Origin: an uncultured Alphaproteobacteria bacterium | Lineage (GTDB): Bacteria; Pseudomonadota; Alphaproteobacteria; Methylaequorales; Methylaequoraceae | Assembly: GCA_902590895.1 (NCBI GenBank) | Contig: CACIYM010000005.1 | Location: 1 to 52,618, forward strand | DNA: 52,618 nucleotides | Direction of reading: 5' to 3' | Shown here: one piece after another, positions 18,185 through 38,124 of the stretch | Layout: every line of letters begins with the position of its first letter | Position numbering within the stretch: position 1 is the stretch's first letter | Translations under genes and position numbers: made by a program | Notes under the pieces: generated by a model | Seen by the model: only the letters and a program-made list of their open reading frames with translations | What the model was told of the DNA's origin: nothing | Databases searched by the model: none

Positions 18185-19423
18185 GTGAAATACATTTATA
18201 AACATGGGAATCAATTTTGGTATCAGAGAGCAGTTCCGTTAAAAATACAAAAAATAATTGGAAAGACTAATATTAAGGTTTGTTTGAAAACCAATAAAAT
18301 TTCCACTGCTGTTCAAAGATCGAAGTTGCAAGCCCTTGAACACAAAAAGTTGTTTCAATATGTAATTAAACAAAACTATTTGTCCAAGGTCTTCTATAAA
18401 AAAGCTATTAATATAAAAAAATATCAATTAACATTTTTTGACGACTATGAGGATTATGTAACAAATATTTTTTTTTCAAAAACGAAGATTTATGAGAATA
18501 TAAAAAATAGGATCAACTTAAACATTAATTCAAGTCAAAAAAAGAAAAATAATAAAACAATTGAGAGTTTTCTTTTCAATATTCAAAGTAAATATTCATT
18601 ATTTTCAGTTATTTTAAAAAACATTTCTCAAGATAAAAAAAAACTTGGTTCGTTAGTTGAGAAAAAAAATTTAAAATTGTTCGTTGATATTTGTGGTGAT
18701 AAACCTGTATACGAATACAACTCAGACGATTACGATAAGTTTCAACTTTTTTTATTCAAAAATAACCTTAATGCTAAACTTATTTTGAAAGCTGTAGTTG
18801 ATGTTATTATCATAGGTTATGCAAACCTAAATATTAAAGAAAAAATAAATTTTAAAAAAAAAATAAAAATTCGAAACACTGGTTCTACTATAGAATTTAA
18901 TGATGATGAGTTATCTTTAATAGAGAGTAAATGTAAAGAATCTTTAGATCTTGAGTCCTTAGTAATTTTATTATTGATGGATACTGGTTGCACTATTAAA
19001 GAAGTTGTTGGGATTACTGCTGATGACATTTATTTAGATAGCTATTTACCTTTTGTAATCATTAGGTCAAATAGATTTAGAAAAATCCATAACGTAAATA
19101 AATTAAGAACGGTCCCTTTAGTAGGGTTGGCTTTATGGGCCTTGGAAAAAATAAAAAGTAATGCAAAATATAATGATTTTTTTACATCTAAAAAAAAGAA
19201 AACTCTTTTAATTAACAAATTAAATTTTAAATTTAAAAAGATTATTTCCAATAAAAATCTGACATCTTTTAGAAAATCATTTATAAAAAGATTAATCAGT
19301 ATAAATTGTCCTGAAAGAGTTATATTAGATATAATCGGACAATCAAAGAAAAATAGATTCTACAGTGATGAAATTAGTCTCGAAATCAAAGCGAGTTGGT
19401 TAAAACAGATTACTAAATATTGA
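18185..19423 (+). CDS. Tyrosine recombinase/integrase-like protein, active site apparently degenerate
   Basis: N-terminal KYIYKHGNQFWYQRAVPLKIQKIIGKTNIKVCLKT (DUF6538-like); C-terminal LLLMDTGCTIKEVVGI and SFRKSFIKRLI...IIGQSKKNRFY match recombinase boxes; sits after tRNA-Leu. Confidence 0.75.
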   Translation: MKYIYKHGNQFWYQRAVPLKIQKIIGKTNIKVCLKTNKISTAVQRSKLQALEHKKLFQYVIKQNYLSKVFYKKAINIKKYQLTFFDDYEDYVTNIFFSKTKIYENIKNRINLNINSSQKKKNNKTIESFLFNIQSKYSLFSVILKNISQDKKKLGSLVEKKNLKLFVDICGDKPVYEYNSDDYDKFQLFLFKNNLNAKLILKAVVDVIIIGYANLNIKEKINFKKKIKIRNTGSTIEFNDDELSLIESKCKESLDLESLVILLLMDTGCTIKEVVGITADDIYLDSYLPFVIIRSNRFRKIHNVNKLRTVPLVGLALWALEKIKSNAKYNDFFTSKKKKTLLINKLNFKFKKIISNKNLTSFRKSFIKRLISINCPERVILDIIGQSKKNRFYSDEISLEIKASWLKQITKY

Positions 19424-24234: not shown

Positions 24235-24312
24235 GGTGGCTGTAGCTCAGTTGGTTAGAGCGTCGGTTTGTGGTACCGAAGGCCGGGGGTTCAAATCCCC
24301 TCAGCCACCCCA
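24235..24312 (+). tRNA. tRNA-His (GTG), G-1 and CCA encoded
   Basis: GTGGCTG/CAGCCAC acceptor, anticodon loop TTGTGGT, T arm GGTTCAAATCC, 3' CCCA. Confidence 0.97.
24263..24312 (+). repeat. tRNA-His 3'-end direct repeat, copy 1 (within intact tRNA; att-like)
   Basis: tcggtttgtggtaccgaaggccgggggttcaaatcccctcagccacccca. Confidence 0.97.
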
Positions 24313-24672
24313 TTTTATTTCTTGTAATCTTACAACTTTTTGTTTTCGTCTTCTTACAGTTCTTTTTTCTTTATTTCTAATAAAACCTATTTCCTGATTG
24401 ATTATATCAAGAGCTAAGTTGTCATATCCATAAGAATAACCATAAAGCAGATTAATAATCATATTAGAAACTGAATTAAATTCTTCTTCATTTAATTTTT
24501 TGGCTAGTATTTTAATACAATATTCAAAGTCTTGATCTATACGACCATCTAAAATCTTATATTTCTTATTAATTAAAATTTTAGGTTTTTTTGATGGCGG
24601 TTTTTTGAATTTATTAAAAAGTAAGCCAAGAATAGAGAATATTTTATTTTTAATTTTTGATACAAAAAACAT
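24301..24672 (-). CDS. Hypothetical protein, C-terminus encoded antisense to the tRNA-His 3' end
   Basis: 123 aa ORF; resembles the 25417-25671 product (KILAKKL..EEFNSV...GYSYGYD). Confidence 0.65.
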   Translation of the reverse strand: MFFVSKIKNKIFSILGLLFNKFKKPPSKKPKILINKKYKILDGRIDQDFEYCIKILAKKLNEEEFNSVSNMIINLLYGYSYGYDNLALDIINQEIGFIRNKEKRTVRRRKQKVVRLQEIKWGG

Positions 24673-24679
24673 AAAAATA

Positions 24680-25327
24680 TTAATTATCTAAGCTGGAATA
24701 AACTTGATTTAAGTTTTCCCAGTCTAAAAAATTATTTGAGCCACCATATAAGATAGAGTCAAGACTATCTGATCTATCATTGTGTATTTTAAATATTTTC
24801 CTAACACCATCAATTAAGAATCTAGTTATTTTTTTATTTTCTTTTTCTAAAACAACATTATTTTCAACTTGATGATTAATAAGATATAATATTACTCCGA
24901 TATATTTGAATGCATTATATAAATTAATCTCAAAGAAAAATTTCTTAAGATCAGTTTTCAAAACCTGATTTTGTAACAAAATAGCTTCATTTTTCGAAAT
25001 TAATTTATCTCGACCAAGATAACAGATTTTATCATCCGTTATAAATTGACTGTTGAAATGTAATTTTTCTTCTATAAGTTTCTTATAAATCAATACAAAA
25101 AACGCATTTGTAAGACCCTCACAGCAACAAGTTCCATGACATAAATGATTGCGCCAGTTATTAATATCTGCAATTTTGCAAACTTCAAAAAATGACAAGT
25201 TTTTTATCATGTAAGGTGTGGCAATATAATACATTATATTATTAAGATTAGAATTTTGAGTAATTTCAAAACCTTGAGATTGTAATAATAATTTTTTTAC
25301 TTCTTGTAATTTGTTAGATTCGACCAT
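24680..25327 (-). CDS. Hypothetical protein with CHGTCCC cysteine cluster
   Basis: 215 aa ORF; no family recognised. Confidence 0.6.
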   Translation of the reverse strand: MVESNKLQEVKKLLLQSQGFEITQNSNLNNIMYYIATPYMIKNLSFFEVCKIADINNWRNHLCHGTCCCEGLTNAFFVLIYKKLIEEKLHFNSQFITDDKICYLGRDKLISKNEAILLQNQVLKTDLKKFFFEINLYNAFKYIGVILYLINHQVENNVVLEKENKKITRFLIDGVRKIFKIHNDRSDSLDSILYGGSNNFLDWENLNQVYSSLDN

Positions 25328-25416
25328 TAAAATAATAACTCCAAAGCTTTAACTATACCTAGTAAAATTAAAACGTTTTTTAAAACCCAACACATTACTT
25401 AAAATCAAACAAATTA

Positions 25417-25671
25417 TTACTTTTTAATCAGACTAAATATCTTTTTATTATTCTTAATTAGATTTTGTCGTTCTTCTTTAGATTCATCTTTTGCTACTGT
25501 GTAGGCCTTACGAGCATCTGCTAATATTCCATTAATATCACCCTCATCGTAACCAACATCACATCCCATATAGAGTTTATAAATAAAATCTTCAACTTCC
25601 TTAAACTCTTTATGAGATAAGTGCTTTGCAATGATCTTAAGTTTTCCAAATGCATAATCATTTATAGCCAT
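25417..25671 (-). CDS. Hypothetical small protein, paralogous in part to the 24301-24672 product
   Basis: LKIIAKHLSHKEFKEVEDFIYKLYMGCDVGYD. Confidence 0.6.
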   Translation of the reverse strand: MAINDYAFGKLKIIAKHLSHKEFKEVEDFIYKLYMGCDVGYDEGDINGILADARKAYTVAKDESKEERQNLIKNNKKIFSLIKK

Positions 25672-25692
25672 AGTTATCCTTTTAAAAATTAA

Positions 25693-25764
25693 TAGGAAAG
25701 GGATATGTACCGAGAAAGGTCGCCTTACTGTGTTAACGTTGAAACTAATACAATCCCTTACCTA
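25693..25764. other. Interrupted inverted repeat between divergent islet genes (possible structured RNA or operator)
   Basis: taggaaaggga (25693-25703) / tcccttaccta (25754-25764), 10 of 11 positions complementary. Confidence 0.4.
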
Positions 25765-25829
25765 TAAACATCATAATAAAAAAAAAAATTGTGTCAACCA
25801 AAAATATAACATAAATAAATAATTGTATG

Positions 25830-25857
25830 TTGACATATAAATATGACAATATATGAT
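25830..25857 (+). promoter_or_regulatory. Sigma70-like promoter TTGACA-16 bp-TATGAT
   Basis: TTGACA 25830-25835; TATGAT 25852-25857. Confidence 0.5.
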
Positions 25858-26304
25858 ATATATATGAATGAAAAAAAATATGATTTTAAAATTGGAAAAA
25901 ACTTATTTGAAATTAAAAGCTTTAATCTTGAAACTGAAAAAGAAATTTTAATTTCACTTAAGAAAATAGAAAAGAATAATAGGACTAAGGAAGAAACTAA
26001 AAAAATTAAAGCAAGTAATTTTAAAGTTATTATTCATAGACGTATGCAAAAGTTGATTGACCTATTAAATGGTCTTTCAAAACTTTCTAACAAATCTCAT
26101 TACAAAGTTGATCATGAGATACTTTTGGAGTGTGAAAATAAGTTAAACGAAGAAATCAGAAAAGTTTTTTCTAAATTTAGATCTTATCAAAAAGAAAAAA
26201 AAATTAGATCTGAATCACAAACAAAAGCTTTGAGAAAGCAATTTGAAGAATTACGCTTATTGATCGATGAGCAAGAAAGCAAAATTAACAATGAAAAAAA
26301 TTGA
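25843..26304 (+). CDS. Hypothetical helical protein (start may be 25864)
   Basis: 153 aa K/E-rich ORF directly upstream of and overlapping the HNH-HIT ORF. Confidence 0.6.
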   Translation: MTIYDIYMNEKKYDFKIGKNLFEIKSFNLETEKEILISLKKIEKNNRTKEETKKIKASNFKVIIHRRMQKLIDLLNGLSKLSNKSHYKVDHEILLECENKLNEEIRKVFSKFRSYQKEKKIRSESQTKALRKQFEELRLLIDEQESKINNEKN

Positions 26305-27352
26305 AAAGATGAAGAATCTTATAAGAAAAATTTTAAGAATAAAAAAAAATAAAAAAAGTATAAGTCCTAATATTTTTCTTAAACTACATAATTATATTTT
26401 ATCTAAGATGCAAATGTCACATATTTATCAACCTTTAATGTTAATTGAGTTGATAAAAGGAGATGGAAAAGCGAATAGAAGAGATATAGCGAAATCTATT
26501 TTAAGCTTTGACGAAGCACAAATTGATTATTACAAAAAAATTATTCAGTCAATGCCATTCAAATATTTGTCTAAACATCTAGATGAAATAAAAAAAAAAA
26601 AGGACGAGTATTACATTAAAGATTTTAATTTAAATGGAAATCAAAAAGAAGAATTGATTAGACTATGTAAAAAAAAATTAAATGAATTCATAAAAGAAAG
26701 AGGTATTAAAAATATTTTTCATCATAGAATATTAGCAACTGGTATTGTTTCCGGCAGTATGAGATATAAGGTTTTATTAAGAGCAAAAAATAGATGTGAG
26801 AGTTGTGGGATATCTAATGAAAAAAAACAATTAGAAGTAGATCATATCATTCCTAAAAGTAAAGGTGGAAAAGATGAGTTTAGTAACTTCCAGGCGTTGT
26901 GCTATACTTGTAACTCTCAAAAAAGTAATAAAGATAATACAAATTTTAAAAAAGTGCTAGAAAGTTATGAACTCAGAAAAAAAGGTTGTATTTTTTGTGA
27001 TTTATCAAAAGATAGAATAATAAATTCAAACGAGCTTGCTGTAGTTATTGAAGATAACTATCCTGTTACCAAATATCATTGTTTAATTATTCCTAAAAGA
27101 CATTGTGAGGATTACTTCGATTTATATCAACCAGAAATAAATGCTGTTTCACAATTGATTAATGAAACAAAAAAAGTCTTAATGAAAAAGGATAAATCAA
27201 TAAAAGGATTTAACATCGGAAGTAATTGTGGTGAGGTTGCAGGTCAGACTATTAATCATTGTCATATACATTTAATTCCAAGAAGAAAAGGTGACTCAAA
27301 AGCCCCGGAAGGTGGTGTGAGAGGAGTGATTCCAGATAAACAAAAATATTAA
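26267..27352 (+). CDS. HNH endonuclease-HIT domain fusion protein
   Basis: HNH: CESCGISNEKKQLEVDHIIPKSKGGKDEFSNFQALCYTCNSQK; HIT: CIFCDLS...HCLIIPKRH...INHCHIHLIPRR. Confidence 0.88.
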   Translation: MSKKAKLTMKKIEKMKNLIRKILRIKKNKKSISPNIFLKLHNYILSKMQMSHIYQPLMLIELIKGDGKANRRDIAKSILSFDEAQIDYYKKIIQSMPFKYLSKHLDEIKKKKDEYYIKDFNLNGNQKEELIRLCKKKLNEFIKERGIKNIFHHRILATGIVSGSMRYKVLLRAKNRCESCGISNEKKQLEVDHIIPKSKGGKDEFSNFQALCYTCNSQKSNKDNTNFKKVLESYELRKKGCIFCDLSKDRIINSNELAVVIEDNYPVTKYHCLIIPKRHCEDYFDLYQPEINAVSQLINETKKVLMKKDKSIKGFNIGSNCGEVAGQTINHCHIHLIPRRKGDSKAPEGGVRGVIPDKQKY

Positions 27353-27363
27353 ATATTCTTGCA

Positions 27364-27413
27364 TCGGTTTGTGGTACCGAAGGCCGGGGGTTCAAATCCC
27401 CTCAGCCACCCCA
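27364..27413 (+). repeat. tRNA-His 3'-end direct repeat, copy 2
   Basis: 50 bp identical to 24263-24312. Confidence 0.97.
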
Positions 27414-27459
27414 TATAAAAAAGTTTAACTCAAAAAAATTTTATGATATTAATTACATT

Positions 27460-27924
27460 ATGTTAAATATTTTTTTAGCGATTGTATCATTAATTTTTTT
27501 TACGACAAGTTGCCAAACAATGAGAGGAGACAAACCTCTTGCAGAAAAAGTAATTAAGTCTGATCCAAGCACAAATTTAACTTTGGGTTTGGTTCAGATG
27601 ACCGTAAGAGAAGGTGCAAGTAAAAATGATATTATTTCATCACTGGGTTCACCTAATATGGTAACAAGTTCAGGTTCTAAAAATGAAACCTGGATTTATG
27701 ATAGAGTCTCTACTGACATTCAAAGAGAAAATGAGTCTGGTTCAGCAGGCTTGGAGGTTGGTTTTGGAGGTTCAGGTGATGTGGTGGGAGGTAATATAGG
27801 GGCTGGAGCCTCGTCTAAATCTTCTGGAGAAGTAGTTGTTCGAACACAAAGGACTTTAACAGTAATAATAAAATTTGTTGATGGAATAGTTTCCTCTTAT
27901 CAGACTAGAGCCACAAGTTTTTAA
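27460..27924 (+). CDS. Putative lipoprotein, SmpA/BamE-like fold possible
   Basis: FFTTSCQTM lipobox; VREGASKNDIISSLGSPNMV...ETWIYD resembles SmpA/OmlA pattern. Confidence 0.65.
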   Translation: MLNIFLAIVSLIFFTTSCQTMRGDKPLAEKVIKSDPSTNLTLGLVQMTVREGASKNDIISSLGSPNMVTSSGSKNETWIYDRVSTDIQRENESGSAGLEVGFGGSGDVVGGNIGAGASSKSSGEVVVRTQRTLTVIIKFVDGIVSSYQTRATSF

Positions 27925-28523
27925 TGTTTTTTTTTTTTCTTATTATATTTACTTTGTTTTTTATTGATTTGGGGAATACACAAGTTATAAACCAATCAAA
28001 TCAACAAAGTACAAAAGTTGAACAAAAGGTTCCAAAAAAAACTTCAGTAGAGATACAAGCAATTCAAACTCGTACATTTGAAACAACAGAGAAGAAATTA
28101 TTTAGAGCAACTCTTAAAGTACTTCAAAACAATAGTTACAAAGATATTATTTCCGATTTTAATGGAGGACTTATAACAGCAAAGTTACCATCTGTTGATG
28201 CTAGTGACTCAGCCGGAACACAAGTTGGCAAGGCTCTTGGTGGATTAATTGTTGGTGCAGTAATTCCTTTTGGAGGGTTATTAGTACCTGGCAAAAAAGT
28301 TGGTCAATTAGATAGAAGTGTGAATATTACTCTTGATCCAATCAAAGATAATTTAATTGAGATAAGAGTTGCATTCCAAATCACTGAAATGACAACCCAG
28401 AGCAATTCTTTTGTATCAACCAACGAAACAATTGAAGATGACCTTACAGATCAACCAGAAATTTACCAAGCATTTTTTGAACAAATTGATAAAGAACTTT
28501 TTGTAAGGGAGAATAAGTATTAG
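27924..28523 (+). CDS. Hypothetical exported/membrane-associated protein
   Basis: Hydrophobic N-terminus; GKALGGLIVGAVIPFGGLLVPGKK; start codon overlaps the preceding stop. Confidence 0.65.
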   Translation: MFFFFLIIFTLFFIDLGNTQVINQSNQQSTKVEQKVPKKTSVEIQAIQTRTFETTEKKLFRATLKVLQNNSYKDIISDFNGGLITAKLPSVDASDSAGTQVGKALGGLIVGAVIPFGGLLVPGKKVGQLDRSVNITLDPIKDNLIEIRVAFQITEMTTQSNSFVSTNETIEDDLTDQPEIYQAFFEQIDKELFVRENKY

Positions 28524-28545
28524 GTAAGATAATCTTATAAAGTAA

Positions 28546-28592
28546 GTTTGTGGTACCGAAGGCCGGGGGTTCAAATCCCCTCAGCCACCCCA
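28546..28592 (+). repeat. tRNA-His 3'-end direct repeat, copy 3
   Basis: 47 bp identical to the tRNA-His 3' end. Confidence 0.97.
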
Positions 28593-28596
28593 TAAT

Positions 28597-29451
28597 TTAA
28601 ATTTCAAAAAAAGTGTAATCACTTTCTCGATTAGCCAATTCATTTAGATTCTTATCAAAGAGATAGAAATTTTCATGAAGATTAATATACAAACCTATAC
28701 CTTTTTTATTATAGTTTTTTGGAGGGTTGAATATTAGTCCAACTTTTTCATTTCCATTTTCATCTAAAGAAAAGTCATCAATATGAACTTTGAAAACTTT
28801 ACAATTATTTAAATATAGACTTGATGGTCTTACTTCAAAACCTGCTGTCAGTTCAATAGGTGAACGTTCTCGGTGTTTATCAGTCCATTTATATCCTGTA
28901 TCATTTCTTTCCCTTATTAAAAAGTTTTTTGATTTTTTTACTATAAAGGAATTTTCAATCCCACCAAGTGACATCATCTTTCCTTTTTTACAATCAAAGC
29001 CAGCATAAATTAAAAGTTGAAGAAAAACTGGAAGAATAGTGGTTGAAATATGTCCCTCCAAAAATCTCTCAGCTGGATGTTTAGGGCCTGAAATAACTAA
29101 ATCTCCATCCTCATTTAGTAAGTCATAAATTTTATCTAGAAAAAAACCTTGATTTCTCTGATGCTCTATTACGTGCGAACAATAAATCATATCATACTGT
29201 GTTTTAAAGTTATATTTATTGAAATCACCGATAAACTCAGCTTTCTTTTCATATTTGTCAATTGAATCAACTAAAAGACCAAAACTTCTCATTATTTTGC
29301 AATGTGCACCTAAAGCACCACCAATATCCAAAACTTTAAATCCTTTTTTAAATTTATTTTTAGATAGTAAGTATTCTATTAATGAGAATCCTCCATAATC
29401 TAATTTAGGTATCTGATCTAACATATAAATATTGAGCAATTTAAATGCCAA
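28597..29451 (-). CDS. SAM-dependent methyltransferase
   Basis: FKVLDIGGALGAHCKIM motif I; YDMIYCSHVIEHQRN...LLNEDGDLVISGP. Confidence 0.8.
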   Translation of the reverse strand: MAFKLLNIYMLDQIPKLDYGGFSLIEYLLSKNKFKKGFKVLDIGGALGAHCKIMRSFGLLVDSIDKYEKKAEFIGDFNKYNFKTQYDMIYCSHVIEHQRNQGFFLDKIYDLLNEDGDLVISGPKHPAERFLEGHISTTILPVFLQLLIYAGFDCKKGKMMSLGGIENSFIVKKSKNFLIRERNDTGYKWTDKHRERSPIELTAGFEVRPSSLYLNNCKVFKVHIDDFSLDENGNEKVGLIFNPPKNYNKKGIGLYINLHENFYLFDKNLNELANRESDYTFFEI

Positions 29452-29574
29452 ATTTTTTAATCAGAAAAATTAATTTATAAATTCAAAAAAATATTTCTAA
29501 AGGTTGGTATTTCATAATTTGGGAGCAATTAAATATGTATGTTTAAAAACATTTTCAGTGATTTTACACGGTGA

Positions 29575-29772
29575 TTAGTATCCATATCCCATTAAGAATT
29601 TTAATCTTTCTGCCTCATCTGCAAGTTTGGTCAATGATCTGGCTGCATCTGAGTTACTCAATGAAATATTATCTTCTTTTGAAACATTTCCGAGGAATGT
29701 AATTAATTCTGGAAGCATTGTTATAGCTCTTTGGTTCTTATTTGCGTCTTTATATTTAGGATCAATTTTCAT
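29575..29772 (-). CDS. Hypothetical small protein
   Basis: 65 aa ORF, non-repetitive composition. Confidence 0.45.
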   Translation of the reverse strand: MKIDPKYKDANKNQRAITMLPELITFLGNVSKEDNISLSNSDAARSLTKLADEAERLKFLMGYGY

Positions 29773-29913
29773 AAATTCATATTATCATAATATGCTTTAA
29801 ATCTAAAAATTTTTGTTTTGTGAAATTTTTATTTCTTGAACAGATTGTAGGAGATTAAATCCACCAAACAAACTCGATAAAATTTAAAAGTATTTAAATT
29901 TTGATGTTATGAT

Positions 29914-34721: not shown

Positions 34722-35531
34722 TTACTGACAGTTTTCAATAGATACCATTGATTCTAACAATTCATCTCCGTCGTAATTGGTTTTTACTCCTTTTATGGTT
34801 GAAGCATCAATGAAGTCATATCCAGTACTTACTCTAACATATTTTTCATCAATACACTTTTTATGAGACGGATCAAAAGCTACCCAACCTAAATCGTTAA
34901 TAAAAATTTCTACCCATGCATGAGTGGTATTTTCACCAGAACTGGTTTCCTCTAATAAAAAACCATTTATATATCTAGCTGGAAGGTTGTTAAATCTGGC
35001 AGCACTTATTAATATGTGAGCAAAATCTTGGCATACTCCTTTTTTTTGTTTTAAAGCATCTCTAGAACTTGTAGATGTTGTTGTCGAACCAGTAACGTAA
35101 TTAATAGAGTTTGAGACTGTTAAATTCAATTTGTGAGCAAATTCGATTAAGTTTTTATTATTTTTTTTTGCTTGGTCTGAAATCTTTTCTATTCTTTTAC
35201 AAGGTTTTGTTAAATGTGTTTCTCTTAAAAAACAAAGTGGGTTAACTTTCTCTTTTAACCCCTTTACGACTCCAGATAGATCCTTTGTTTTTAATATCCC
35301 CTTAGAAGTTATTTTGAGTTGTCCACTAAAATTTTTAATAAAAATATTCTGTACTCTGTGTCCTAACCCATCAAAGTGAGATTCAATTATTTTTCCGTTG
35401 CTGGTAGATGTTTCCCAATTTAATATTTCTTGATTATCACAGATTGATGGATAGAGTTTTAGACATTGTATAAGCCTTGGGACTGTTGAACTGTATTTAT
35501 AAGTTGTTGAGTGTGTTATTTTAATTTTCAT
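34722..35531 (-). CDS. Transglutaminase-like cysteine peptidase domain protein
   Basis: KQKKGVCQDFAHILISAARFNNLPARYINGFL; THAWVEIFINDLGWVAFDP. Confidence 0.93.
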   Translation of the reverse strand: MKIKITHSTTYKYSSTVPRLIQCLKLYPSICDNQEILNWETSTSNGKIIESHFDGLGHRVQNIFIKNFSGQLKITSKGILKTKDLSGVVKGLKEKVNPLCFLRETHLTKPCKRIEKISDQAKKNNKNLIEFAHKLNLTVSNSINYVTGSTTTSTSSRDALKQKKGVCQDFAHILISAARFNNLPARYINGFLLEETSSGENTTHAWVEIFINDLGWVAFDPSHKKCIDEKYVRVSTGYDFIDASTIKGVKTNYDGDELLESMVSIENCQ

Positions 35532-36487
35532 GTTTCTACACCGAAAAAGTATTTCTGTTCAAATTTTTTATAAACATAATTAATTTCCTCAATAAAGGAT
35601 TTTAAAAACTCATGTAAACCAATTTCAGTAATTTTATTGGCATTTAAATTTTTTATTTTTTTATACATTAGGCCTATTTTTTTATTTGAAGTAGAGGTTT
35701 GTTTATAAAATTTTGATAACCTTCCTAAGTGATGATTAATTTTTTCTATTGAAAAAATTAAGGACCTTGGGCAGGTCATATTCAAAATTAAAAAATCTAT
35801 AATTTTTGTGTAAGTAATTTCTTGTCCTCCATAAGCCCACTTAAAAGCTCTGAATGATGAAATTGATCGTAACATTAAACTCCATTGAAAATTATCAATA
35901 TCACTTCCAACATAATTTATACTCGGAAGTAAAATAAAATACTTAACATTAATAATTCTTGCCGTAAAATCTGCCCTTTCAAAATAAGTTCCTAATATTA
36001 AAAAATCGTATCCATCATTTATTAGTTGTGTGTTGAGTATTGTACCTCGAATTAAATTTACTTGCTTTTTTATCCATTCAATAATTTCAGGTAATTCTTT
36101 TAAGATGTTTTTAGTCTCTTTCAAATTTTTGTCTAACTCGTGATAAGAAGAGTTTACGGCATTCCAAACTTCTAATGTTACCGCAGTTCTTACCATTCTT
36201 ATATTTTCTCTTGCTGTTTTTATACAGTTTTTTACTGAAGAAGAATTTTCTGGATCAAAAAGTAGATAGAAAATAATTTTTTCTTTAGATATTGTTTTAT
36301 ACTTTTTTAAATATTCATTTTTAATTCCTGAGGTTTCTAGTATGGACTCCCACTCGTTTGTATATCCTTTTTCAGTGTTAGGAATCAATGATATTCTATA
36401 TCCAACTTCCAAAAGTCTAGCTAATGAATCGGCTCGCTCAATATATCTAGCTGACCAAAATAAATTTTCTGCGGTTCTACTCAACAT
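35528..36487 (-). CDS. Alpha-E domain protein (DUF403)
   Basis: MLSRTAENLFWSARYIERADSLARLLEV; operon context. Confidence 0.9.
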   Translation of the reverse strand: MLSRTAENLFWSARYIERADSLARLLEVGYRISLIPNTEKGYTNEWESILETSGIKNEYLKKYKTISKEKIIFYLLFDPENSSSVKNCIKTARENIRMVRTAVTLEVWNAVNSSYHELDKNLKETKNILKELPEIIEWIKKQVNLIRGTILNTQLINDGYDFLILGTYFERADFTARIINVKYFILLPSINYVGSDIDNFQWSLMLRSISSFRAFKWAYGGQEITYTKIIDFLILNMTCPRSLIFSIEKINHHLGRLSKFYKQTSTSNKKIGLMYKKIKNLNANKITEIGLHEFLKSFIEEINYVYKKFEQKYFFGVET

Positions 36488-36492
36488 ACTTA

Positions 36493-37899
36493 TTATTCAT
36501 TTAGTACCCATGTATCTTTTACTCCTCCACCTTGAGAAGAATTAACTACCAATGAACCTTGATTTAAAGCCACCCTTGTTAGTCCGCCGTCAACTAATTT
36601 TGTTTTTTTTGCTCCAACTAAGCAAAATGGTCTAAGATCAACGTGTCTTGGAGATAGTTTTTTTTTGTCAAAGATCGGTACTGAGGATAACTCAAGTATT
36701 GGTTGGGCTATATAATTTGCAGGATTTAGAAGAATTTTTTTTCTAAAAATTTCAATTTCTTTTTTTGACGATTTGCTTCCAATTAATAAACCATAACCTC
36801 CAGAGCCGTGAACCTCTTTGACAACTAATTTATTTAAATTGTTAAGAACATATTTTTTTGCATCCTCTTCGCAACATCTCCATGTTTTAACATTATCTAA
36901 TATAGGTTCTTCACCTAAGTAAAATTTAATGATTTCAGGTATGTAAGAATAAATAGCTTTATCGTCAGCAATACCTGATCCAGGCGCAGAGCAAATATTT
37001 ACATTTCCGGATTTATATGAATCAAATAAACCAGGAATTCCAATTAGTGAAGAACTATCAAAAGTGATTGGATCAAGAAATTTATCATCAATTCTTCTAT
37101 AAATAATATCTACTTTCTCTGGGCCTCTAGTCGTTTTCATATATGTTATTGATTCATCAACAAAAAGATCTGTTCCTTGAACTAGCTCAACTCCCATAAG
37201 ATCAGCAAGAAAACTATGCTCGTAATACGCGCTATTTAAAGAGCCAGGTGTCAGAATCACAACTTTTGGTTCTTTATTACATTTTTTTGGAGCTAGACTT
37301 TTTAGAGCATCTAACAAATAACTTGGATAGTTTTCTACTGTTTCAATTTTCAATTTTTCAAATAACTCTGGAAACATTCTCATCATTATTTCTCTATTTT
37401 CAATCATGTATGAAACTCCAGACGGAGTTCGACAATTATCTTCTAGAACTTTAAAAATATTTTCATTTATTCTTACAATATCAGATCCAATTATTGGACT
37501 ATAAATTCTTTTGGGAACCTTAAAGCCAATCATTTTTATTTCATAAGCAGGGTTTTTATAAATTAAATTTTCCGGTATTAATTTTGCTTTTATAATTTCA
37601 CCAGAATTATATATATCGTTAAGAAATGCATTAATAGCTAAAGCCCTTTGAATAACTCCCTTTTTAATTTTTTTCCATTCAATGGAAGAGATTATTCTTG
37701 GAAACATGTCAAATGGAATTAAGCGTTCTGTAGAATCAAAGTTATTGTACACAGAAAATGTAATACCTATTTTTTTAAAAAGATTTTCAGCTTCATTTTT
37801 TTTTTTAACAATTACATTTTCGGGTAAAGACTTAGCCCAATCATATATTTGATTGTAAAATTTTCTTACTTTTGAATTTTTATAAACTTCGTTATACAT
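36493..37899 (-). CDS. Circularly permuted ATP-grasp protein (DUF404/DUF407)
   Basis: RIISSIEWKKIKKGVIQRALAINAFLNDIY; NICSAPGSGIADDKAIYSYIPEIIKFYLGEEPIL; HGSGGYGLLIG. Confidence 0.92.
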   Translation of the reverse strand: MYNEVYKNSKVRKFYNQIYDWAKSLPENVIVKKKNEAENLFKKIGITFSVYNNFDSTERLIPFDMFPRIISSIEWKKIKKGVIQRALAINAFLNDIYNSGEIIKAKLIPENLIYKNPAYEIKMIGFKVPKRIYSPIIGSDIVRINENIFKVLEDNCRTPSGVSYMIENREIMMRMFPELFEKLKIETVENYPSYLLDALKSLAPKKCNKEPKVVILTPGSLNSAYYEHSFLADLMGVELVQGTDLFVDESITYMKTTRGPEKVDIIYRRIDDKFLDPITFDSSSLIGIPGLFDSYKSGNVNICSAPGSGIADDKAIYSYIPEIIKFYLGEEPILDNVKTWRCCEEDAKKYVLNNLNKLVVKEVHGSGGYGLLIGSKSSKKEIEIFRKKILLNPANYIAQPILELSSVPIFDKKKLSPRHVDLRPFCLVGAKKTKLVDGGLTRVALNQGSLVVNSSQGGGVKDTWVLNE

Positions 37900-37933: not shown

Positions 37934-37984
37934 GATGCGTTCCTTCGGTTTCAAACCTACTTCCGACCAAAAAAGGTTGAACGT
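37934..37984 (-). ncRNA. Glutamine riboswitch aptamer (glnA RNA-type), 5' of the ATP-grasp operon
   Basis: Minus strand ACGTTCAACCTTTTTTGGTCGGAAGTAGGTTTGAAACCGAAGGAACGCATCCC; CGTTC/GAACG P1, GGTTT-GAAACC hairpin, conserved CGGAAGUAGG and GAAGGAACGCA segments. Confidence 0.85.
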
Positions 37985-38124
37985 TTGTTTAAGGTTATAT
38001 CTTATATTTTTTTAAATCAAGAATTAAATTGATTGTAGTAATGAATTTAAAAGTAAAAGTTCCTTTAAAGTATTTATTAATAAATTTTTCTTTTAATAAT
38101 TCATTTGAAGATTAAATAGTAATA

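What the first reader, a model, noticed from the sequence alone, without database searches (positions are those of the whole stretch)
24235..28592. Three copies of the tRNA-His 3' end define two tandem integrase-less islets
Seen: intact tRNA-His at 24235-24312, then exact copies of its 3' 50 bp at 27364-27413 and 47 bp at 28546-28592, all in the same orientation. This is the signature of sequential site-specific integration at a tRNA att site. The resulting units are ~3.1 kb and ~1.2 kb with no recombinase inside, so they look like satellite-type islets mobilised in trans, or remnants.
Basis: seen in the sequence. Interest (0 to 1): 0.78.

Follow-up and report, generated by a model that had tools for sequence, protein, structure and literature searches.

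The report
Integrase-less gene cassettes behind tRNA-His
In a marine bacterium, small groups of genes lie in a row behind one tRNA gene, each ending in a copy of that tRNA's tail, which shows that they were inserted one after another by an enzyme they do not carry; a virus with the matching insertion site and enzyme was found, so it may be what moves them.

Summary
In detail: an intact tRNA-His (24235-24312) and exact same-strand copies of its 3' end at 27364-27413 and 28546-28592 bound units of 3.1 and 1.2 kb with no recombinase. The site is an insertion hotspot across the alphaproteobacterial family: 11 of 21 readable tRNA-His loci carry one to four downstream copies (one of them weak), arrangements differ between genomes, and the islet-B genes occur alone behind tRNA-His in another genus (G026). 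Islet A's HNH-HIT gene was found in no relative. A third, older islet (28593 to about 29877) with an eroded boundary follows in the window. No site-specific recombinase lies at any of these loci. A temperate phage in IMG/VR carries this family's exact 47-bp tRNA-His tail as attP beside its own integrase. One relative's islet (G024) also shares about 105 bp of that phage's attP arm, but islets A and B do not. Best reading: att-flanked, non-autonomous cassettes moved by a phage integrase in trans or through prophage accretion, a phage analogue of CIMEs and tRNA-anchored additive islands. Site-specific integration is well supported; the identity and mode of the helper are inferred.

The parts
24235..24312 (+). 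tRNA-His (GTG), the attachment site. Its 3' 47 bp (24266-24312) is the repeated core. Chimeric relative to kin: TCGG anticodon stem joined to a GAAGGCC variable-loop side
24313..27413 (.). Islet A, 3101 bp, 22-30% GC, no recombinase; its HNH-HIT gene was not found in any other sampled family genome
24301..24672 (-). Islet A ORF, 123 aa; its stop codon lies inside the tRNA/att core; related to the 84-aa ORF (44% over 32 aa)
24680..25327 (-). Islet A ORF, 215 aa, unknown; distant homologue (29%) near a DISARM-like, integrase-bearing island in G002
25417..25671 (-). Islet A ORF, 84 aa small protein
25843..26304 (+). Islet A ORF, 153 aa, unknown
26267..27352 (+). Islet A HNH-nuclease/HIT-hydrolase fusion, 361 aa (HNH 177-222, HIT 248-341; motifs intact by eye)
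27364..27413 (+). tRNA-His 3' copy 2 (50/50 identical): right end of islet A
27414..28592 (.). Islet B, 1179 bp; gene content found also in G026 (another genus) directly behind tRNA-His
27460..27924 (+). Islet B lipoprotein-like ORF, 154 aa (weak BamE-like; phrog_3135)
27924..28523 (+). Islet B secreted/membrane-type ORF, 199 aa; 67% identical to the G026 homologue, absent from the other 30 family genomes
28546..28592 (+). tRNA-His 3' copy 3 (47/47 identical): right end of islet B
28593..29877 (.). Inferred older islet C: methyltransferase (28597-29451 -) and 65-aa ORF (29575-29772 -); relatives of each abut tRNA-His copies in G005, G020 and G029
29831..29877 (+). Eroded tRNA-His 3' copy, recognised by alignment to the intact junction in G020

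Best explanation
The tRNA-His gene is a site-specific integration hotspot. Islets A and B, and an older islet C, are non-autonomous, att-flanked gene cassettes inserted one after another behind it (well supported). They have no integrase, so insertion and any excision must use one supplied from elsewhere. The best candidate is the tyrosine integrase of a temperate phage that uses the same tRNA-His tail as its attP (phage, integrase and attP shown in sequence; its action on these islets inferred). Movement would be either in trans on the islet's att sites, or by accretion: a prophage inserts next to an islet and excises from the tRNA to the distal copy, taking the cassette with it (inferred). 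Islet A probably confers a nuclease-based, defence-like function (HNH-HIT fusion; inferred); islet B encodes two envelope-type proteins of unknown role.
For: Exact repeats. Eleven of 21 readable family loci have 1-4 downstream copies, nearly all starting at the same anticodon-loop edge (one of the 11 at E=0.07), with islets of 0.35-6.6 kb, median 1.36 kb. Arrangements differ: islet B alone in G026, genus-mate G002 without B's second gene, and A's HNH-HIT gene in no relative sampled. Att|methyltransferase junction shared with G005, plus an eroded fourth copy. Copies of different allele within one locus (G024, G005). G000 tRNA is chimeric while 21 relatives show strict stem/variable-loop linkage. 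No tyrosine or serine recombinase at any tRNA-His locus, while integrase-bearing islands sit at tRNA-Ser and tRNA-Thr. Phage with the exact 47-bp core beside an integrase, in three IMG/VR records, with portal, terminase, head and repressor genes; among 84,980 species that core occurs only in this family. G024's islet shares about 105 bp of the phage attP arm (arm-only score 110, shuffle maximum 42).
Against: Islets A and B show no similarity to the phage arm, and islet B has almost no room for arm sites. G024's other end does not match the phage's second arm. The phage integrase was found in none of 32 host genomes and no phage contig carries an islet. No excised circle or within-species empty site was seen. 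The crossover point is inconsistent: G024 suggests the T-arm side, G000's chimeric tRNA the anticodon side. Ten of 21 loci show no copy.
Confidence: 0.6

Rival explanations
1. Remnants: each islet is what is left of a once complete integrative element or prophage (with integrase) that inserted at tRNA-His and lost its mobility genes. The copies are scars and nothing is mobile now.
For: No integrase in any islet. G024's islet shares only one of the two phage arms. Integrase-bearing islands exist at other tRNAs of the family. Eroded copies are common.
Against: About two dozen units, most under 2 kb, bounded precisely by the core and none with even a partial integrase, imply repeated deletion to just cargo plus core. 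The three copies in the window are still identical. Compact islets with short non-coding edges look like units rather than debris.
Confidence: 0.25
2. Cassettes spread mainly by homologous recombination between tRNA-His loci of related cells (flanks and 47-bp copies as homology), after a rare founding integration.
For: Whole arrays with pseudo-tRNA copies occur at ectopic sites (G002:C1, G020:C29). Flanking genes are shared. Homologous exchange was proposed for other islands of HIMB59, the order suspected here (PMC10734472).
Against: Islet boundaries sit exactly at the core in many genera with unrelated neighbours on the right, which homologous exchange alone does not create. The islet-B cargo is only 74% identical in DNA between its two hosts.
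Confidence: 0.1
3. The repeats arose by local duplication of the tRNA 3' end, or are assembly artefacts, with no integration.
For: None found beyond the repeats themselves.
Against: Different cargo per genome, same left edge of the copies across genera, a phage carrying the same core as attP, shared junctions in independent assemblies (G026, G005).
Confidence: 0.02

Closest known systems
CIMEs (cis-mobilisable elements; Streptococcus, PMC7563491)
   Same: att-flanked, no recombination genes, 1.2-13 kb cargo units in tandem at one target, moved by accretion of a helper at a flanking att site
   Different: The helper candidate here is a temperate phage, not an ICE or IME; no tandem helper has been seen in place; derivation from a larger element is not shown
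Additive flexible genomic islands with repeated tRNA-Lys 3' ends (Methylopumilus, PMC10872708)
   Same: Variable cargo marked by repeats of the last bases of a tRNA in a streamlined aquatic bacterium, from 330 bp upward
   Different: Here the core is 47 bp of tRNA-His, islets are mostly 0.6-4 kb, and a phage with the matching attP is identified
Tycheposons (Prochlorococcus; read here through PMC10872708 and PMC11389934, original paper not held)
   Same: Cargo islands anchored at a tRNA in marine bacteria
   Different: Tycheposons are described with a tyrosine recombinase and 4-200 kb; none of these islets has one
Phage satellites (PICI, P4-like, PICMI)
   Same: Small chromosomal islands dependent on a phage
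   Different: Known satellites normally encode an integrase and genes that act on the helper (own knowledge); neither was found here, and dependence on a phage is proposed for integration only, not shown for packaging

Membership tests
CIME-like element | Flanked by att sites | tested here: met
CIME-like element | Lacks recombination and conjugation/mobilisation genes | tested here: met
   No recombinase or other mobility gene among the islet ORFs
CIME-like element | Derived from a larger ICE or IME; moved by accretion with one | tested here: inconclusive
   No ICE or IME found at the site; a phage arm is shared in G024 only
Additive flexible genomic island at a tRNA | Variable cargo between relatives at one tRNA, with repeats of the tRNA 3' end | tested here: met
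Tycheposon | Tyrosine recombinase within the island | tested here: not met
   no PF00589 hit at any tRNA-His locus
Phage satellite (PICI/PICMI/P4) | Own integrase or helper-interfering/packaging genes | tested here: not met
   for islets A and B; DruA, methylase and GIY-YIG-like genes but no packaging gene in relatives' islets
Phage satellite (PICI/PICMI/P4) | Packaged into helper particles | not testable with these tools
   Needs induction and particle DNA
Integron gene cassette | attC hairpin sites and an integron integrase | tested here: not met
   The repeated site is the tRNA-His 3' end; the tyrosine-recombinase search finds none at the locus

The most novel reading that the evidence does not exclude
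A phage-driven gene-cassette system: in this marine family a temperate-phage integrase shuffles one- to few-gene cassettes (defence, phosphatase, envelope and even conserved operons) in and out of a growing array whose recombination site is the tRNA-His tail, an integron-like array without an integron integrase.
Probability: 0.25. Interest if true: 0.75.

Novelty: new member of a known kind. Interest (0 to 1): 0.5.

Why it matters
Abundant streamlined marine bacteria keep a large flexible gene pool, but how small gene sets without mobility genes move is mostly unknown. Here the att core, the array strata and a candidate helper phage are all in hand for one site, so mobilisation of integrase-less islets can be tested directly. 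The cargo (restriction-modification, Druantia-type and Pycsar-effector-like genes, an HNH-HIT fusion, phosphatases) links the site to phage defence and nutrient adaptation.

Tried and rejected
Phage integrase homologues in host genomes: none in 32. HNH-HIT relatives in viral contigs: none confirmed; in the annotated phage collection only partial matches, the listed ones covering the HIT part. Looser att pattern in viral contigs: the same three records only. Phage-arm motif in other family genomes: only G024, plus one 3-mismatch match elsewhere in G002. Degenerate tyrosine recombinase at tRNA-Leu (18185-19423) considered as helper and rejected: it sits at another tRNA, has lost Arg-I and the box-II His, and no tRNA-Leu repeat was found. 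Integrase-bearing islands at tRNA-Ser and tRNA-Thr considered as donors: different att sites. Serine recombinases: two in the family, neither on a tRNA-His contig. SAG names in the literature to fix the taxonomy: no paper names them.

Full report
What is there. The window is one contig (C5) of a 1.07-Mb, 71%-complete alphaproteobacterial assembly. tRNA-His lies at 24235-24312. Exact copies of its 3' end follow on the same strand at 27364-27413 and 28546-28592. The units between them are 3101 bp (islet A) and 1179 bp (islet B). Profile libraries find no recombinase in either.

Cargo. Islet A is 22-30% GC, below its surroundings. It encodes three leftward ORFs (123, 215 and 84 aa) and two rightward ones (153 aa and a 361-aa HNH nuclease-HIT hydrolase fusion). 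The stop codon of the 123-aa ORF lies inside the tRNA/att core. Islet B encodes a lipoprotein-like ORF and a second secreted or membrane-type ORF. The non-coding edges are short: 11 bp at A's right end, and 46 and 22 bp around B.

Relatives. Thirty-two genomes of the family were searched. All the named relatives but one are 'uncultured Alphaproteobacteria AG-/AH-' single-cell-type records. I suspect the HIMB59/AEGEAN-169 order, but did not test this. The left side of tRNA-His is conserved (aminotransferase, GlnB, GlnA, tRNA-Leu) in most of them and the right side is hypervariable. A profile of the 47-bp core finds downstream copies in 11 of 21 readable loci, one of them weak (G030, E=0.07), all on the tRNA strand, from exact to eroded. 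The 23 bounded units measure 351-6635 bp, median 1359 bp. G012 has four copies, and G024 has three of mixed alleles. The islet-B gene pair is found alone behind tRNA-His in G026, another genus, at 67% protein identity for the second gene and 74% DNA identity; that second gene is in no other family genome. The HNH-HIT gene of islet A is in no other sampled family genome; its full-length relatives (49-52%) are in distant Alphaproteobacteria.

An older stratum. To the right of copy 3 in the window, a methyltransferase gene abuts the copy just as its homologue abuts a copy in G005 (81% over 901 bp). The next small ORF is bounded in G020 and G029 by a copy. Aligning the G020 junction to the window shows an eroded copy at about 29831-29877. 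The array therefore has at least three units, with the repeats perfect near the tRNA and decayed further away.

Who integrates. No tyrosine or serine recombinase lies at any tRNA-His locus of the family, although integrase-bearing islands with matching tRNA ends lie at tRNA-Ser and tRNA-Thr. Scanning IMG/VR for the core found one phage in three records. It has the exact 47-bp core about 0.4 kb before its integrase gene, with arm-like repeats at -110, -98, -48 and +119. It also has portal, terminase, head and CI-like repressor genes. Among 84,980 bacterial and archaeal species the core occurs only in this family, which points to the phage's host. The right end of G024's 6.6-kb islet matches about 105 bp of the phage arm plus the phage's core allele (arm-only score 110, shuffle maximum 42). 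None of the other islet ends stands out in this way, islets A and B included.

Allele evidence. In 21 relatives the anticodon stem and variable loop of tRNA-His are strictly linked: CTGG with GGAGG[CT]C, and TCGG with GGATGTC. The window's tRNA alone is mixed (TCGG with GAAGGCC), as if its 3' half had been replaced. G024 and G005 carry middle copies of the other allele. The two patterns suggest different crossover points, so that detail is unresolved.

Mechanism. Site-specific integration at tRNA-His is well supported. Because the islets lack an integrase and the minimal ones lack room for arm sites, two routes remain for a phage integrase: direct action in trans (best supported for G024), or accretion, in which a prophage inserts beside a cassette and excises with it. 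Accretion is how CIMEs are moved by ICEs (PMC7563491), and small cassettes would fit in a phage head (inference). Fossil remnants are the main rival.

Cargo function. Relatives' islets carry two C5 cytosine methylases with a GIY-YIG-like ORF (by eye), DruA with a GHKL ATPase, a Pycsar-effector-like protein, phosphatases and glycosyltransferases. Islet A's HNH-HIT protein is probably defence-like, but only by domain and by company; its PADLOC matches are partial.

Known kinds. The closest are CIMEs, additive flexible islands with tRNA-Lys repeats (PMC10872708) and tycheposons. The tycheposon test fails on the recombinase. The find is a new member of a known kind, with the candidate helper phage as its most useful addition.

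Noticed in passing
window 18185-19423 (+): Tyrosine-recombinase-like gene directly behind tRNA-Leu(gag), kept at that place in several genera but with catalytic Arg-I changed to S/T and the box-II His lost; possibly a domesticated or dead integrase under selection.
   Followed up: partly
window 37934-37985 (-): Glutamine riboswitch (RF01739) upstream of a circularly permuted ATP-grasp/alpha-E/transglutaminase operon (34722-37899) rather than glnA; in G005, G010, G012 and G027 that operon is itself bounded on its right by a tRNA-His copy.
   Followed up: partly
L039 (G002:C1) and L035 (G020:C29): Ectopic near-full-length, mutated tRNA-His copies followed by islets away from the real tRNA-His locus, as if a piece of the array had been moved.
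   Followed up: partly
L132 (G002:C3): Island with a 389-aa integrase, a C5 methylase and DISARM-like large proteins; it carries a 74-aa protein 69% identical to one in a G020 tRNA-His islet.
   Followed up: no
window 26267-27352: HNH-HIT fusion protein with full-length relatives in distant Alphaproteobacteria; one (G242, L127) lies next to a GIY-YIG/T5orf172-like gene. Function unknown.
   Followed up: partly
L049 (G024): 6.6-kb tRNA-His islet encoding DruA and a GHKL-type ATPase, whose right end shares the phage attP arm.
   Followed up: yes
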